Shown here in pieces: positions 22,230-33,730 of a stretch of DNA of 33,730 bases. The notes under the pieces are model-generated. The model saw only the letters and a program-made list of their open reading frames with translations, had not been told where the DNA came from and searched no databases. Position numbers and translations under genes: made by a program. How positions within the stretch are numbered: the first letter of the stretch is position 1; every line of letters starts with the position of its first letter. The stretch is taken from positions 1 to 33,730 of the forward strand of contig CALHCC010000028.1 of assembly GCA_937930675.1 (NCBI GenBank). The letters are read 5' to 3'. Source of the stretch: an uncultured Flavobacteriaceae bacterium. Lineage in GTDB: Bacteria > Bacteroidota > Bacteroidia > Flavobacteriales > Flavobacteriaceae.

Positions 22230-22591
22230 ATTTTTTTGCCAACGGGTTTTGTTAAGCTTATTGTGTGGGGTAATCTACAAATTATAGGACCAATCTCTTG
22301 GTTTAGGTTTGTTTTTTGTTTTTATTTTTGTCAGTTAAAACTAATTAAATAAGTTTAAGTGAACAAAGTAAAAAAGCTTAAAACATCGAATAAAAAATCA
22401 AGTTCACATTAAGTTTAGCTTTAGTTTTCTTTGTGATTTAACAATAAGTGTTTTTTTTCTCATTTAGCTCTAAATTTTTCATAATTATCTAGTTAATTAT
22501 TGAAAATGATTTATTTTTTTTGATTAAATGTTCTAAGAAAGACGAGTATAAAACTTAATTCTTAAACTACAATATTAATAATAGTATTTGA
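22230..22591. other. AT-rich intergenic stretch without recognisable genes
   Basis: No convincing coding frame, tRNA or strong hairpin was seen between the acyltransferase start and the RNA candidate upstream of uvrB's stop. It presumably holds the acyltransferase promoter, but no exact TAnnTTTG element is well placed. A GTGAAC / GTTCAC pair occurs in the middle, too short to interpret. Confidence 0.5.
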
Positions 22592-22677
22592 TGCGTTAAG
22601 GATGGAAGTGACATCCTTTTGTGTTTGATAAAACCAAAAGATAGAACGTACAGCCTGACCGTAGGGAACGCCCTTAT
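22592..22677 (+). ncRNA. Structured RNA candidate, resembling the Flavo-1 type element of Flavobacteria
   Basis: AAGGATG (22598-22604) and CATCCTT (22612-22618) can pair around GAAGTGA. A related second half begins AAAAGATAGAACGTACAGCC, and a GGGAACGCCC hairpin ends the element just before the uvrB stop. The order 'GGATnGnAGnG..ATCC, AAGATAGnA, AGCCnGACCGnAGGGAACGCCC' is one I recognise from many flavobacterial intergenic regions and believe corresponds to the Flavo-1 motif. The name is from memory. Strand is assigned by that resemblance. Function is unknown. Confidence 0.45.
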
Positions 22678-29293: not shown

Positions 29294-32200
29294 TTACAAT
29301 GATGAAACAAAATTAAAAGCCTCGTTAAATTCCATAGGTTTTGATAAGTTAGAAATATGTTTGTTTTCAATGATTTTGATAAATCGGTTTACATGAAATA
29401 AAGTATCTTTTTCTGATGCTCTTTTTAATTTTACTTTAAAAATATTTTTAATTTTATCATAATGATTTATCACTAAGTTTTCAATATATTTTTCAAAAAA
29501 TATCTTTAAATTATAAACCTGTCTAGAATCTTTCCAATCATTTAAATAAATAAAATCAAAAAGATGTGTAATAATTTGGTCGTCTTTGTAGTAATTATAT
29601 TCATCTGATCCTATTAAGTCATAACTTTCTAAGTCTTCAAAATGTTTTTCTTTTGTTTTGTTCAATATAAAGTTTATAATATAAGGGTGGTTTGATGTAA
29701 ATAAAATTTCTAAGGCATCCCTTTTATATTTAAATATGGTATGTGGTGTTTGTAAATATTCAACAGCTTTTTGTGTACAAAATTGATTACTTGACGAATC
29801 TGTCTGAAATAAGATTTTTAAAGCATTCCAACAATAATCCGTGTTAATATCATTACAATAATCTTTTAATGAATCTTGTAATTGAAAATTTTTAATAAAA
29901 AGTGAAAAGTTAGATGAAGAATAATAATTACTTGTTAGAAAGTAAGCTTTAATTTCTGTTTCTACAGTAGTCAAACAATTTTCTATAGCATAATCAATGT
30001 ACTTATTTTCAATAAAAATGGGTAACGATTTATTTTGAATGAGTTGTATGATATGATTTTCAAATTTAACAAGGTCTCCACACCATTTTTTTATTTGAAT
30101 AAAGATTTTGTCATCGTTATTGGATACTAATAAATAAGGAAGTAATTTTAAAATAAATGATTGATCTATATCGATATTTAATTTATTTTTAAAGTAGTAT
30201 ATTAATTCAATTTTCTTATAGCTATTGTTTAAATAACTAAACCCTTTTCTATTATTATTTAAAGCCCAAACATTCTTAAAATTAAGTTCATTGGTTACTT
30301 TGGTAGACCAGTTAGCAATTTGTTTTATTTGATGTGTGTTGACTTTAATTTCAGGATTATGTTCAAGTTGTTCTTTAATTTGTTCAATTAAAATAATAGG
30401 GTGTTTAAGCAGTTCTTTTCTTAGATGTGTAAAATTAATTTTATTTTCATTGGAGTACTCATGTAATATTTCTTCAATTATATTTATAGATGAGTTTAAA
30501 TTATAATATTCATGCCCCATATCATCAGCCCAAGAATTTTCTATAGTATAGAGTATGTCATAATCAATATCACTATAGTTGTCTTTAAATATTAATTCGA
30601 TGCTATTTAATAATTTATCTTTCTCAAATAGTAAATTAAAATTTTCTTGTTTGAAGTTAAGTAAGTTCATTTTTTGTTGATTTTGAGCTTCAATAGTAAA
30701 TACGGGTTGGTTAAATTGAATTCCTAATTTTTGAAGTTTCTCATCAAATAAAACAGCTAATTCAGTTGAATTAAAGCACCTAATATCATTTCTTAATCGC
30801 TCAAATTCATCATTTATAATATCTTTTTTGTGAATAATTTTTGTAACAATAGAGTCTATATTAAATTCAGAAACAAAAAGTGATATATTAATGTAATCTT
30901 TACGGGGGAATTTGTTTGCTATATGTTCACATAAGTAATTTTTTGTATTACTTAATTTACAAATCTTTAAAATGGTAGATTTTTGACTACTAGAATAGCA
31001 TAAGTAATCTTTTTCAATACTTTCATACAAGTCAATTATAAATTGATTGTTTTTTTTGACTTTTTCAACAGCTTTTTGAAGTAGATCATCTGTTATTTTA
31101 TTAAAAATATGATGTTCTTTAGTGAAAAATAATTTAAATACCTCTAGAAATAAATTATCGTTATCAATCTTAAGTAATAGTTTGTCTATAATCCAGCTAT
31201 AGCCTCCCATCTTTACTTTACTAGGTGTTTTTCGTTCTTCTAAATTGTTTTCTTTTTTAAACTCTTCAAAAAAGAATCGGAAATAGTTATCTATATGAGA
31301 TTCTAATTTTAATAAGTTCATTAAGCGGTACCGAATCTTTTCATCATCAAAATCAATAAAAGATTCAATTAAAAATGACAAGAATGAGTTGTTTTCTTTT
31401 GTTAATTTTAACAAATAAATGGTATTTAAAATTTCTTCTTTGGTGTTTAACGTTACGTTATTAGACCTTATCATTTTTTTAAAAAGACTTATTAATTTTT
31501 GTTTGTTATCGTAAATAGAAAGGTGTCCTAATAAATATAATGCTGATTGGATTACTCTAAAATGGTAATTTTTGTTACTAATAATATAAATTAAGTATTC
31601 TTGGTTTTCAGCACAATCTCCAAATTTGCCAATCTCCTCTATAGTATAATCTTCGCTTATCCAAAGACTTTTATCAATACATTGTTGTTTAAAGTAGTCT
31701 TGAAATATTTTTATTTTGATGCGTTTACTAATTCTGTTGTTATCAAACTTAAAAAACAGTTCATTTTCGTTTTTTAATAACCAATCAACTATAAAGTTAT
31801 GAGTGCTATCATCTACTATTTGTAATAAAAAGCTTAGTGTGTTAATTAAGTTAGGGTGAATTTTGTTACAATCTTTAATAATAAATTGTAATAGAATTTT
31901 TTCTTTCTCTAATTCCGAAAAAAAAATAGCAGCAAAATATTCTTGAATGTTTCTGTTTTCAAAACTAAAATGATATTCATCACTACTAATTAATGGGGAT
32001 AATGTAAATTGATTTACATAGCTATAGCTATTATTTAGTAGTTTCTTTAGATGTTTTTTTGATAGGCTAGTAGTTTGCATTAACTCACCTACAATTCCAA
32101 TTTTAGGGGCTTCGTTTGTAAAAAGAAAACTATCATAAGGTCTTTTCTCTAGTTTGTCTACATTATCTTTTAATCGTTGTTCTATGTAGGTTCTCCATAA

Positions 32201-33427
32201 TTCTGAGAAGTTATTTGTTAGTTGATTATTTTTGTTGATATACTCTGCTAGTATTTCGGTTTGTTGTGGAGATTTAATAAAATCTAGATGCTTATTGTTA
32301 AACGAAAAGTCTCTGATATTAACGTTTGGGCATAATTTTTCTAATAAATTAAACGATTCATCGTAAGAGAAGTCTTTAAGGTAATAGGTGTTAAAATTAG
32401 AAGCGTTTCTTACTATTGAATTGTAAATATTGTTTCTACAGCTAATAATATATTTACTGTTTAGACTTTGTTTTTGTGTAAAAAGATGAAGTTCACTTTT
32501 AAAATGTTCTATATTTTGTATTTCATCAATTCCATCTAAAATAAATAAAGGATAAGGAGTGTTTTTTAATTTTTGGGGTAAGTAATTCTTTAAAGTTTCA
32601 CGAGAGGAAAAATTTCTTAAATTCCTATAAATAGGAGTATAACTATTTTGCTCTCCCTCTTTCCAATACATACAAGCAATTTGTTGCAATAGACAGGTTT
32701 TTCCTGTTCCCGGGTTGCCTAAAATAGCAATGTAATTCTCTTTGTCTAGTACGTCTTCTATGATTTTTCCTCTGTAATAAAGATGAAACTCTTTACTATT
32801 ATTATTGACAAGTGTTCTTTTAATAAAATTTTCATTTGGTTTTATCTTACCAATGAATTGTAATTTGTCGTTTTCGTTTAAAAAAGTAGTTAATATATCA
32901 ATAGAAAAAATAATAGATTTAAATCTTTCTATTTCTTTATTTATATCTATTTTAAAGGAGAGGTCTTCGTTATAAATCTTTTTATACAATGTAGGATTTA
33001 GTGCAAAAATATTTTTTACGTGATTACTTTTTTCGAGTAATTCTATTTTAAAAGGAAATTTACTTTTCCAAAATGGTTGTATTTTATCGGGTTCATTTCT
33101 GTTAGAAAAATTTGTTTTAGGGCTAATTGCAATAAATACATCATTTTTAGAATTTAATTGATAATTGGTTTCAAGTTCCATAGCTTTTTGGAAAACTTGT
33201 CCTATTTCAACATTTGAAGTGTAGTTTTTACATTCAATAAATATTCTACGAAAAGAATTGTGATTCATGATTTTTAAAAAAACATCAAAACCATTTTGTG
33301 TACCAGCTTTTTGCTTTCTTTCCTTTGTAACAGAAAAACCGATTTTATTAAATAACCATACAAAAAAATCTAAAACATGTCCTTCAAATTCATTACCTAT
33401 TTGTTGGTTGCTTTTCTTTACATTCAT
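29294..33427 (-). CDS. Nuclease-NACHT STAND ATPase, candidate antiviral defence protein
   Basis: A 1377-residue protein. Residues 1-130 form a PD-(D/E)xK (Mrr-like) nuclease domain: Glu14 in GNEFEGHVLD, Asp48 in GFDVFLK, and Glu65/Lys67 in IFIECKNY. A NACHT ATPase follows, with Walker A GNPGTGKT (237-244), Walker B LFILDGIDEI (294-303) and KYIISCRNN as a sensor region, ending near the NACHT-typical ENRNIQEYFAAIFF (about 500). The remaining 850 residues are Leu/Ile/Asn-rich helices, probably an alpha-solenoid sensor. In Avs and bNACHT defence proteins, sensing of a phage product triggers an N-terminal nuclease. That activity here is inference. It is a stand-alone gene next to purL, very rich in Lys, Asn and Ile, suggesting transfer. 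The start ATG at 33427 is the first in frame. Confidence 0.9.
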   Translation of the reverse strand: MNVKKSNQQIGNEFEGHVLDFFVWLFNKIGFSVTKERKQKAGTQNGFDVFLKIMNHNSFRRIFIECKNYTSNVEIGQVFQKAMELETNYQLNSKNDVFIAISPKTNFSNRNEPDKIQPFWKSKFPFKIELLEKSNHVKNIFALNPTLYKKIYNEDLSFKIDINKEIERFKSIIFSIDILTTFLNENDKLQFIGKIKPNENFIKRTLVNNNSKEFHLYYRGKIIEDVLDKENYIAILGNPGTGKTCLLQQIACMYWKEGEQNSYTPIYRNLRNFSSRETLKNYLPQKLKNTPYPLFILDGIDEIQNIEHFKSELHLFTQKQSLNSKYIISCRNNIYNSIVRNASNFNTYYLKDFSYDESFNLLEKLCPNVNIRDFSFNNKHLDFIKSPQQTEILAEYINKNNQLTNNFSELWRTYIEQRLKDNVDKLEKRPYDSFLFTNEAPKIGIVGELMQTTSLSKKHLKKLLNNSYSYVNQFTLSPLISSDEYHFSFENRNIQEYFAAIFFSELEKEKILLQFIIKDCNKIHPNLINTLSFLLQIVDDSTHNFIVDWLLKNENELFFKFDNNRISKRIKIKIFQDYFKQQCIDKSLWISEDYTIEEIGKFGDCAENQEYLIYIISNKNYHFRVIQSALYLLGHLSIYDNKQKLISLFKKMIRSNNVTLNTKEEILNTIYLLKLTKENNSFLSFLIESFIDFDDEKIRYRLMNLLKLESHIDNYFRFFFEEFKKENNLEERKTPSKVKMGGYSWIIDKLLLKIDNDNLFLEVFKLFFTKEHHIFNKITDDLLQKAVEKVKKNNQFIIDLYESIEKDYLCYSSSQKSTILKICKLSNTKNYLCEHIANKFPRKDYINISLFVSEFNIDSIVTKIIHKKDIINDEFERLRNDIRCFNSTELAVLFDEKLQKLGIQFNQPVFTIEAQNQQKMNLLNFKQENFNLLFEKDKLLNSIELIFKDNYSDIDYDILYTIENSWADDMGHEYYNLNSSINIIEEILHEYSNENKINFTHLRKELLKHPIILIEQIKEQLEHNPEIKVNTHQIKQIANWSTKVTNELNFKNVWALNNNRKGFSYLNNSYKKIELIYYFKNKLNIDIDQSFILKLLPYLLVSNNDDKIFIQIKKWCGDLVKFENHIIQLIQNKSLPIFIENKYIDYAIENCLTTVETEIKAYFLTSNYYSSSNFSLFIKNFQLQDSLKDYCNDINTDYCWNALKILFQTDSSSNQFCTQKAVEYLQTPHTIFKYKRDALEILFTSNHPYIINFILNKTKEKHFEDLESYDLIGSDEYNYYKDDQIITHLFDFIYLNDWKDSRQVYNLKIFFEKYIENLVINHYDKIKNIFKVKLKRASEKDTLFHVNRFIKIIENKHISNLSKPMEFNEAFNFVSSL

Positions 33428-33518: not shown

Positions 33519-33555
33519 AAAAAAGCCTCAAGAATTTTCTTGAGGCTTTTTTATA
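33519..33555 (-). terminator. Rho-independent terminator of purL
   Basis: AAAAAAGCCTCAAGA (33519-33533) pairs perfectly with TCTTGAGGCTTTTTT (33538-33552) around a 4-base loop. T residues follow on both strands, so it may also work in the other direction. It starts 19 bases after the purL stop. Confidence 0.94.
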
Positions 33556-33573
33556 TTTTATAAATATGATTAC

Positions 33574-33730
33574 TTATTTAGTTAACCATTCTTTAGCGTT
33601 TACAAAAGCTTCTAACCAAGGAGAAACTTCGTCGTTTCTATCCGTAGGGTAGTTTGCCCAGTTCCATTGGAAAATAGAACGCTCAATATGTGGCATCATT
33701 ACTAAGTGACGACCATCCTCAGAACTCATC
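33574..33730 (-). CDS. purL: Phosphoribosylformylglycinamidine synthase, 3' end only
   Basis: Only the last 52 codons lie in the window. They read MSSEDGRHLVMMPHIERSIF, then QWNWANYPTDRNDEVSPWLE and AFVNAKEWLTK. The PHIER segment carries the His and Glu of the class I glutamine amidotransferase triad, and 'SEDGRHLVMMPHIER...W' is the C-terminus of the large single-chain PurL, the fourth step of purine synthesis. The cysteine of the triad and the synthase domains lie beyond the window edge. It ends in a strong terminator. Confidence 0.88.
   Translation of the reverse strand, partial: MSSEDGRHLVMMPHIERSIFQWNWANYPTDRNDEVSPWLEAFVNAKEWLTK

What the first reader, a model, noticed from the sequence alone, without database searches (positions are those of the whole stretch)
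29294..33427. PD-(D/E)xK nuclease-NACHT protein: single-gene antiviral candidate
Nuclease residues (Glu14, Asp48, Glu65, Lys67), complete NACHT motifs and an 850-residue helical sensor-like tail match the architecture of Avs/bNACHT defence proteins. The long tail may recognise an as yet unknown phage protein. It is a singleton with atypical composition, inserted beside purL.
Basis: partly seen in the sequence, partly recalled or inferred. Interest (0 to 1): 0.75.

Follow-up and report, generated by a model that had tools for sequence, protein, structure and literature searches.

The report
Nuclease-armed bacterial NLR-like immune receptor
A flavobacterial genome carries a large protein built like the inflammasome receptors of animal immunity, with a predicted DNA-cutting enzyme at its front, and its relatives carry the same receptor body paired with quite different predicted killing modules.

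Summary
The ORF at 29294-33427 (-) is real: 1377 codons. It is not a core gene: 11 of 397 family genomes match, itself and partial matches included, and one congener keeps only a 94-nt remnant of its 5' end. The defence reading is supported. One scan of genome contigs gave 54 loci; I take 37 as the family. The same NACHT-plus-tail body carries this nuclease fused in 11, a metallophosphoesterase gene immediately upstream in 12 and a two-TM mini-protein gene in 7; the other 7 carry other or undetermined parts. Strong defence genes (Gabija, pAgo, type IIG RM and others) lie next to 7 of the 37. Most likely the tail senses a phage product, the NACHT module oligomerises and the nuclease cuts DNA, aborting infection; trigger and activity are untested. 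It works like Avs and bNACHT proteins, but no PADLOC model matches it and no Pfam or PADLOC model covers the tail. New member of a known kind; effector exchange is the most interesting part.

The parts
29294..33427 (-). Whole gene: nuclease-NACHT-helical tail protein, 1377 aa
32969..33427 (-). PD-(D/E)xK (Mrr-like) nuclease domain, residues 1-153; E15, D48, E65, K67
   Evidence: Mrr_cat 20.1 bits, just under the cut-off of 21; residues invariant in 14 of 14; predicted topology
33227..33235 (-). E65-C66-K67 catalytic motif
33284..33286 (-). Asp48, predicted metal ligand
32303..32755 (-). NACHT NTPase core, residues 225-375
   Evidence: Pfam NACHT and nSTAND3; NLRC4-like fold
32696..32719 (-). 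Walker A GNPGTGKT, residues 237-244
   Evidence: G237, G240, G242 and K243 in 37 of 37 family rows
32519..32548 (-). Walker B region, residues 294-303
   Evidence: D298, G299, D301 and E302 in 37 of 37
31898..32302 (-). Helical and winged-helix part of the NACHT module, residues 376-510; invariant Q495-E496
29297..31897 (-). C-terminal helical HEAT-like solenoid, predicted sensor, residues 511-1377
   Evidence: model pLDDT 86.2; generic HEAT/ARM matches
33519..33552 (+). Terminator-like hairpin between purL and the gene
33574..33729 (-). 3' end of purL (51 codons plus stop), upstream neighbour cut by the contig end
   Evidence: gene name recalled

Best explanation
The protein is a bacterial NLR-like (STAND/NACHT) immune receptor with a built-in DNA-cutting effector. 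Inferred steps: at rest the helical tail holds the NACHT module closed. A phage-made molecule, most likely a protein, binds the tail. The NACHT module then binds ATP and oligomerises, as NLRC4 and the Avs proteins do. The clustered N-terminal PD-(D/E)xK domains become active and cut phage and host DNA, so the infected cell dies or stalls before phage is released. Shown here: the three-part anatomy, the conserved catalytic and Walker residues, the predicted NLRC4-like fold, the sparse distribution with loss in a congener, defence genes next to some relatives, and the replacement of the effector part by other predicted effectors on the same body. Not shown: the trigger, oligomerisation, nuclease activity and phage protection.
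For: NACHT 41.9 bits. NLRC4 is the best solved fold match: Foldseek 6.4e-12, Z 23.1 over 315 residues at 3.7 A. E15/D48/E65/K67 in 14 of 14 nuclease domains; Mrr_cat found in 8 of 14, best 5.9e-4. Walker residues in 37 of 37. Matches in 11 of 397 family genomes, 7 of 395 in the order and 4 of 395 in the phylum, the own genome counted each time. In the genus (7 genomes): the window's genome, one 27% identical protein elsewhere in a congener, and a 94-nt remnant in another. Relatives carry alternative effectors. Gabija, pAgo, two type IIG RM genes, HamB-like, PtuA-like and HKD-Snf2 genes adjoin 7 of 37 loci, while 134 control genes matched only UvrD-helicase-type and mad3 models. Literature: bNACHT25/32 use an N-terminal PD-(D/E)XK DNase; D48A abolishes defence, and DNA is degraded on infection (PMC12169576, passages). 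A metallophosphatase-NACHT protein, DS-8, protects against phage and needs both domains (PMC13092281, passages).
Against: No PADLOC model matches the protein at E up to 1 and no solved structure matches it by single-sequence search at E up to 1. Mrr_cat stays below Pfam's cut-off for the window protein. Of the window's neighbours, none was recognised as a defence gene, but they were scanned with Pfam and NCBIfam only, and one flank is cut by the contig end. No relative was found in phage or viral collections. 30 of the 37 related loci have no defence neighbour that I traced. The tail's fold matches are generic (Z 8.7-11.1 for the 50 entries listed), so sensing by the tail is by analogy only.
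Confidence: 0.8

Rival explanations
1. It guards against plasmids or other incoming DNA rather than phage: the tail senses a plasmid-borne product and the nuclease removes the plasmid or kills the cell.
For: Mrr-like nucleases restrict foreign DNA in general (established knowledge); sparse distribution.
Against: The closest tested systems of the same plan (bNACHT25/32, DS-8, Avs1-5) are antiphage.
Confidence: 0.1
2. Same machine, but indirect sensing: it is triggered by damage to a host function or by a host chaperone complex rather than by direct binding of a phage part to the tail.
For: bNACHT25 senses through host DnaJ (PMC12169576, passages).
Against: Nothing here separates direct from indirect sensing. 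Most of the tail is less conserved than the NACHT module, which suits a fast-evolving sensor but proves nothing.
Confidence: 0.2
3. The gene is decaying or cryptic and no longer works in this genome.
For: A congener holds only the first 30 codons of it; one relative (L007, the same contig as L034) is broken.
Against: The window ORF is open over 1377 codons, with every catalytic and Walker residue kept.
Confidence: 0.05
4. The N-terminal domain is an inactive or merely DNA-binding PD-(D/E)xK fold and the real output lies elsewhere.
For: The sequence match to Mrr_cat is marginal, and no solved structure matches the domain's profile.
Against: All four catalytic residues are invariant in 14 of 14, across domains down to 28% identity to the window's; relatives have other effector types in its place.
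Confidence: 0.05

Closest known systems
bNACHT25/bNACHT32 (bNACHT clade 6)
   Same: N-terminal PD-(D/E)XK DNase effector, central NACHT module, C-terminal sensing part, one gene (PMC12169576, passages)
   Different: Clade 6 is described there with an NCH1 helical domain; Pfam reported no such domain here. No sequence of bNACHT25 was at hand, so relatedness was not measured.
Avs (AVAST) types 1-5
   Same: Tripartite STAND design with N-terminal effector and C-terminal repeat sensor; nSTAND3 scores 38.7 bits here, the NTPase type named for Avs5 (PMC12931631, passages); relative L040 carries an Avs1/Lamassu-like lactamase-fold gene plus a trypsin-like N-terminus
   Different: No PADLOC model, Avs included, matches the protein; the tail profile has no convincing match among PDB sequences (best E 0.022)
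DS-8 (metallophosphatase-NACHT) of DefensePredictor
   Same: Effector plus NACHT plan of the 12 metallophosphoesterase relatives; experimentally antiphage (PMC13092281, passages)
   Different: Fused in one protein there, two genes here. A Klebsiella plasmid protein of the fused plan shares the enzyme and NACHT but not the tail; whether it is DS-8 was not checked.
Swarozyc (DUF4062 NADase)
   Same: Four relatives (L010, L058, L120, L123) have a DUF4062-like N-terminus in place of the nuclease: Pfam below cut-off in three, no match in L058. The paper notes DUF4062 next to a NACHT ATPase in human NWD1, NWD2, TEP1 and NPHP3 (PMC13174449, passages)
   Different: In the passages read, bacterial Swarozyc has an auxiliary domain, with no mention of this receptor body
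STAND conflict systems with exchangeable effectors (Aravind and colleagues)
   Same: Calcineurin-type, REase, trypsin and TIR domains are listed as effectors that replace each other beside STAND/NACHT NTPases or adaptor domains (PMC8195603 and PMC7159879, passages)
   Different: The passages read do not describe this tail or this set on one receptor body
EruA (NCBIfam NF058535)
   Same: NACHT region, 34 bits
   Different: Curated cut-off is 1000 bits; only residues 224-419 match. No paper on an antiphage EruA appeared in two searches (listings only).
Human NLRC4
   Same: NACHT fold, Z 23.1
   Different: Eukaryotic; CARD instead of nuclease, LRR instead of helical solenoid (recalled)

Membership tests
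Bacterial NLR-related (bNACHT) proteins | Central NACHT module | tested here: met
   Pfam 41.9 vs 26.7 bits; NLRC4-like predicted fold
Bacterial NLR-related (bNACHT) proteins | N-terminal effector domain | tested here: met
   PD-(D/E)xK residues invariant in 14 of 14, predicted topology
Bacterial NLR-related (bNACHT) proteins | C-terminal sensing domain | tested here: inconclusive
   Helical solenoid predicted; binding not testable
Bacterial NLR-related (bNACHT) proteins | Protects against phage | not testable with these tools
   Needs plaque assays
bNACHT clade 6 | NCH1 domain and NACHT phylogeny within clade 6 | tested here: inconclusive
   No NCH domain listed by Pfam at E up to 1, but whether Pfam holds NCH1 was not checked; no reference sequences for a tree
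Avs (AVAST) | Match to PADLOC Avs models | tested here: not met
   No PADLOC family at E up to 1
Avs (AVAST) | Effector-STAND-repeat sensor architecture | tested here: met
Avs (AVAST) | Recognises terminase, portal or another defined phage protein | not testable with these tools
   Needs binding or co-expression tests
PD-(D/E)xK / Mrr-like nucleases | Catalytic E...D...ExK set in an alpha-beta-beta-beta-alpha-beta core | tested here: met
   (sequence and predicted topology; spatial clustering of the residues not examined)
PD-(D/E)xK / Mrr-like nucleases | Pfam Mrr_cat above curated cut-off | tested here: inconclusive
   20.1 vs 21 bits for the window domain; 8 of 14 members at E up to 0.01
EruA antiphage family | Score above NCBIfam cut-off | tested here: not met
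   34 vs 1000 bits

The most novel reading that the evidence does not exclude
The window protein belongs to a receptor family, mainly of Bacteroidota, that I did not find described, in which one NACHT-plus-solenoid body serves as a plug-in chassis. The same body delivers an infection signal to chemically unrelated effectors, fused in some (nuclease, DUF4062-type NADase, trypsin-like protease) and in others encoded as a separate protein just upstream (metallophosphoesterase, two-TM membrane protein). In the membrane-protein form the signal would pass through a matched short beta motif, two copies in the effector and one in the receptor, as in fungal HET-s/NWD2.
Probability: 0.4. Interest if true: 0.72.

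Novelty: new member of a known kind. Interest (0 to 1): 0.5.

Why it matters
The gene extends NLR-like antiphage immunity to a receptor body with a large sensor that the PADLOC and Pfam libraries used here do not cover. Because the same body occurs naturally with at least five kinds of effector, fused or separate, it offers a direct way to ask how a STAND receptor switches on unrelated enzymes and whether receptor and effector can be mixed freely. The tail gives a defined target for finding a new phage trigger.

Tried and rejected
Rejected: chance ORF (1377 open codons with a 41.9-bit NACHT domain); core housekeeping gene (matches in 11 of 397 family genomes); phage- or plasmid-borne gene (no relative in phages or viral contigs; only weak cyanobacterial NACHT matches, 16 plasmid records).

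Not supported after testing: repeated independent gain of the nuclease on the receptor tree. The tree needs 8 effector changes where 6 is the least possible for 7 kinds, 0 of 200 shuffles as low, but a tree that keeps all 13 nuclease rows together is not rejected (AU p 0.131). The window row is a long branch, so its place is unsure. Withdrawn: transfer to a gammaproteobacterium. L039 is labelled Glaciecola, but two genes beside it are 92% and 79% identical to those beside L053, labelled Fluviicola, so the record's label is doubtful there.

Led nowhere: profile search of the tail against PDB sequences (best E 0.022, entry 8g4k) and of the nuclease domain (no match at E up to 1); fold neighbours of the nuclease alone (NACHT filled the list; no further prediction was allowed); Avs and bNACHT structures do not appear among the rows listed, which excludes nothing; promoter scan (32 sites found, 37.9 expected); the 228-aa downstream neighbour has no relative near other family members; the Klebsiella metallophosphoesterase-NACHT gene has no match in E. 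coli genomes by blastn in distant mode, so a tested E. coli relative was not reached. The Kibby 2023 paper on bNACHT is not held.

Rows dropped: of 54 loci, 17 weaker ones (L059-L075) were left out of the family counts, although L064 (Paenibacillus, E 3e-22) may be a distant member. L034 (broken receptor), L037 and L053 (cut by contig ends) are in the 37 but not in the tree. Of 137 flanking genes found, 3 were left out of the scan because they belong to the systems themselves, leaving 134. Of 146 control genes, 134 were drawn at random. Relatives found later (L118-L123) are not in the counts.
Full report
What is there. The window's last complete gene, 29294-33427 on the minus strand, is one open frame of 1377 codons. 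Pfam finds NACHT (41.9 bits, cut-off 26.7, residues 232-365) and, almost as strongly, nSTAND3 (38.7 bits, cut-off 27.2). Mrr_cat at residues 14-78 falls just below its cut-off (18 bits in the whole protein; 20.1 against 21 when the domain is scanned alone). PADLOC has no match at E up to 1. NCBIfam's EruA model matches only the NACHT part, 34 bits against a cut-off of 1000. No solved structure matches by single-sequence search at E up to 1. GC is 0.243, the lowest of 25 ORFs.

Surroundings. The contig ends 303 bases upstream of the gene. The last 51 codons of a frame there match the ends of 1234-1235-codon frames at 92-100% identity in 6 of 6 congeners. I recognise them as purL from the sequence; the name comes from no call. 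A terminator-like hairpin lies between. Downstream are a 228-aa lysine-rich protein, an FAD-binding monooxygenase-like protein with matches in 7 of 7 genomes of the genus, an AraC-type regulator and, further on, uvrB. In the six congeners purL and the monooxygenase are not neighbours, and the genes after purL look different each time (judged by eye), so the borders of an insertion cannot be drawn. The family of the genome is inferred to be Flavobacteriaceae: contigs of the same lengths (220036, 485730 and 671246 bases) appear under Aureivirga, Lacinutrix and Flaviramulus in the named collection.

Distribution. At protein level 11 of 397 genomes of the family match at 1e-10. This counts the window's own genome; one of the others has only the nuclease domain (L011), and one is cut by its contig end (L009). 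With a tail profile 7 of 395 genomes of the order and 4 of 395 of the phylum match at 1e-20, own genome included. In the genus, of 7 genomes, one congener has a 27% identical protein elsewhere. Another keeps a 94-nt stretch at 82% DNA identity around the first 30 codons, with no further match in the 1.9-kb stretch read: a remnant of a lost copy. One scan of the genome collection gave 54 loci. I take L022-L058, 37 loci, as the family and leave 17 weaker ones out. One of the 37 (L039) is labelled a gammaproteobacterium, but its neighbours are 92% and 79% identical to those of a Fluviicola locus (L053), so the label is doubtful.

The family. The N-terminal part and the gene just upstream vary. 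In 11 of 37 the same PD-(D/E)xK domain is fused, as in the window. In 12 of 37 the receptor starts about 40-50 residues before the Walker A motif, and a calcineurin-like metallophosphoesterase gene (Pfam 61.3 bits in the one scanned) ends between 11 bases inside and 2 bases before it; its likely metal-site residues (D8, H10, D48, N98, H99, H233, H263; roles recalled) are invariant in 12 of 12. In 7 of 37 a gene for a protein with two hydrophobic, membrane-type segments lies from 4 bases of overlap to 2 bases upstream; it is 92-96 codons long in six, and in L024 a 153-codon frame whose last 93 codons correspond. The remaining 7 are: L040, a metallo-beta-lactamase-fold gene (LmuA 1.4e-78, Avs1a 2.5e-33) plus a trypsin-like N-terminus (24.1 bits, cut-off 27.6); L058, a DUF4062-like N-terminus by eye, not matched by Pfam; L049 and L053, undetermined N-termini; L047 and L050, no partner recognised upstream and a longer C-terminus; L037, cut by its contig end. 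Further DUF4062-like forms are L010, L120 and L123 (Pfam 14.5, 19.2 and 23 bits, cut-off 24.7). L039 and L053 sit beside the same 923-aa gene, one with the metallophosphoesterase pair and one with a fused N-terminus of another kind: the same site with different effector parts, seen from one side only because L053 ends there.

Tree of the receptor body. On 37 rows (window, 34 of the 37 loci, plus L093 and L010) the effector kind changes at least 8 times; 6 is the least possible for 7 kinds, and 0 of 200 shuffles are as low as 8. The window protein, L022 and L038, all nuclease-bearing, stand among two-TM and metallophosphoesterase rows, apart from the other nuclease rows, on starred branches of a quick tree. 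An AU test does not reject a single nuclease group (p 0.131), so repeated gain of the nuclease is not established. The window is a long branch with unusual composition.

Structure. Residues 1-520, predicted with 30 sequences: mean pLDDT 83.4. The nuclease shows helix, three strands, helix, strand in the canonical order; its residue blocks lie at pLDDT 65-94. The NACHT module matches NLRC4 first (Foldseek 6.4e-12; VIA Z 23.1, 315 residues, 3.7 A), ahead of NLRP3, NOD2 and plant NLRs. The tail, 873 residues with 33 sequences: mean pLDDT 86.2, almost all helical. Its listed matches are mostly eukaryotic HEAT/ARM-type solenoids, Z 11.1 at best over 282 residues, within the range the tool gives for helical repeats in general: the fold class is clear, a specific relative is not. 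The NACHT module and the first ~115 residues of the tail are on the whole better conserved than the rest of the tail.

Defence neighbourhood. I took the two nearest genes of at least 100 aa on each side of the 37 loci: 137, less 3 that belong to the systems. Scanned with PADLOC at 1e-30, the 134 genes matched 61 models, of which the tool shows 25. Traced to their loci: HamB-like (L022), GajA and GajB (L033), HKD-Snf2 C3a139 (L035), PDC-M01A/PtuA-like (L038), type IIG restriction-modification (L043 and L058) and class II pAgo (L054). That is 8 genes at 7 of 37 loci. I picked the 10 neighbours for by hand, and 5 of them had no match. Other models in the list (PDC-M30A/B, PDC-M41B, ShosA, mad3) were not traced. 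Control: 134 of 146 genes from twelve arbitrary 15-kb stretches of nine genomes with a match matched 23 models, each in one gene, all UvrD-helicase-type (GajB, RTasHel) or mad3. The control is not matched for gene length, and the tool does not give the number of genes hit, so no rate is claimed.

How it most likely works. By analogy with NLRC4, Avs and bNACHT proteins: the tail senses a phage product, ATP-bound NACHT modules assemble, and the nuclease domains cut DNA, ending the infection with the cell. bNACHT25/32 are the nearest tested precedent: D48A in their DNase abolishes defence, and infection leads to DNA degradation (PMC12169576; I read passages). For the metallophosphoesterase relatives the precedent is DS-8, a fused metallophosphatase-NACHT protein that needs both domains for protection (PMC13092281; passages). 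A Klebsiella plasmid protein of that fused plan shares the enzyme (33% over 74% of the query) and the NACHT region (25 bits) but not the tail. For DUF4062-type relatives, DUF4062 is reported as a TIR-like NADase used in antiphage defence (PMC13174449; start of abstract and passages).

What is new. The architecture is known, and exchange of effectors beside STAND NTPases, calcineurin-type enzymes among them, has been described in general (PMC8195603 and PMC7159879; passages). The receptor body with its tail was not named by Pfam, PADLOC or NCBIfam. Searches for NACHT with calcineurin-like phosphoesterase or metallophosphoesterase gave no paper that, in the listings and passages seen, describes this two-gene pairing. 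The library holds only openly licensed papers and lacks the main bNACHT paper, so earlier description elsewhere is possible. I rate it a new member of a known kind, with the effector exchange as the feature worth following.

Noticed in passing
L023, L024, L025, L026, L028, L043, L056 (two-gene relatives): The small two-TM protein ends in two copies of a short beta-like motif (hydrophobic-x-x-hydrophobic, 2-3 residues, S-x-hydrophobic-x-hydrophobic) and the partner receptor starts with one copy, the layout of fungal HET-s/NWD2 and bacterial BASS/BELL pairs (PMC7889193, passages). A profile left-one-locus-out scores the receptor N-termini at 69.8 in sum against 18.5 +- 8.2 in shuffles, 0 of 5000. 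Only 4 of 7 loci are strong alone (L026, L028, L056 are not), a plain alignment shuffle test gives p 0.0085, profile-profile alignment gives probability 10%, and the motif was picked by eye from the same data: a lead only.
   Followed up: partly
L039:1805-5951 and L053:2405-7374: Same chromosomal site (923-aa neighbour 92% identical, next gene 79%) with different effector parts on the receptor; the Glaciecola label of L039 is doubtful.
   Followed up: partly
L040:4208-9642: A lactamase-fold gene and a trypsin-like domain on the same receptor body: an Avs1/Lamassu-like effector set.
   Followed up: partly
L011:1-1992: The same nuclease domain (37% identical) in a 315-aa protein beside a 198-aa protein and an SMC-like ATPase fragment, with no NACHT in the stretch read: the nuclease module is shared with another system type.
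   Followed up: partly
L033:5334-5957 and L048:5357-5956: A similar-looking ~200-aa gene 22-23 bases upstream of two nuclease-type receptors, with a weak TIR_2 match (E 0.014 in L033): possibly a second effector.
   Followed up: no
L094:1475-1590 (congener G400): 94-nt remnant of the window gene's 5' end, 82% identical.
   Followed up: yes
window 22585-22664 (+): Flavo-1 RNA, 47.6 bits against a gathering score of 42.
   Followed up: no
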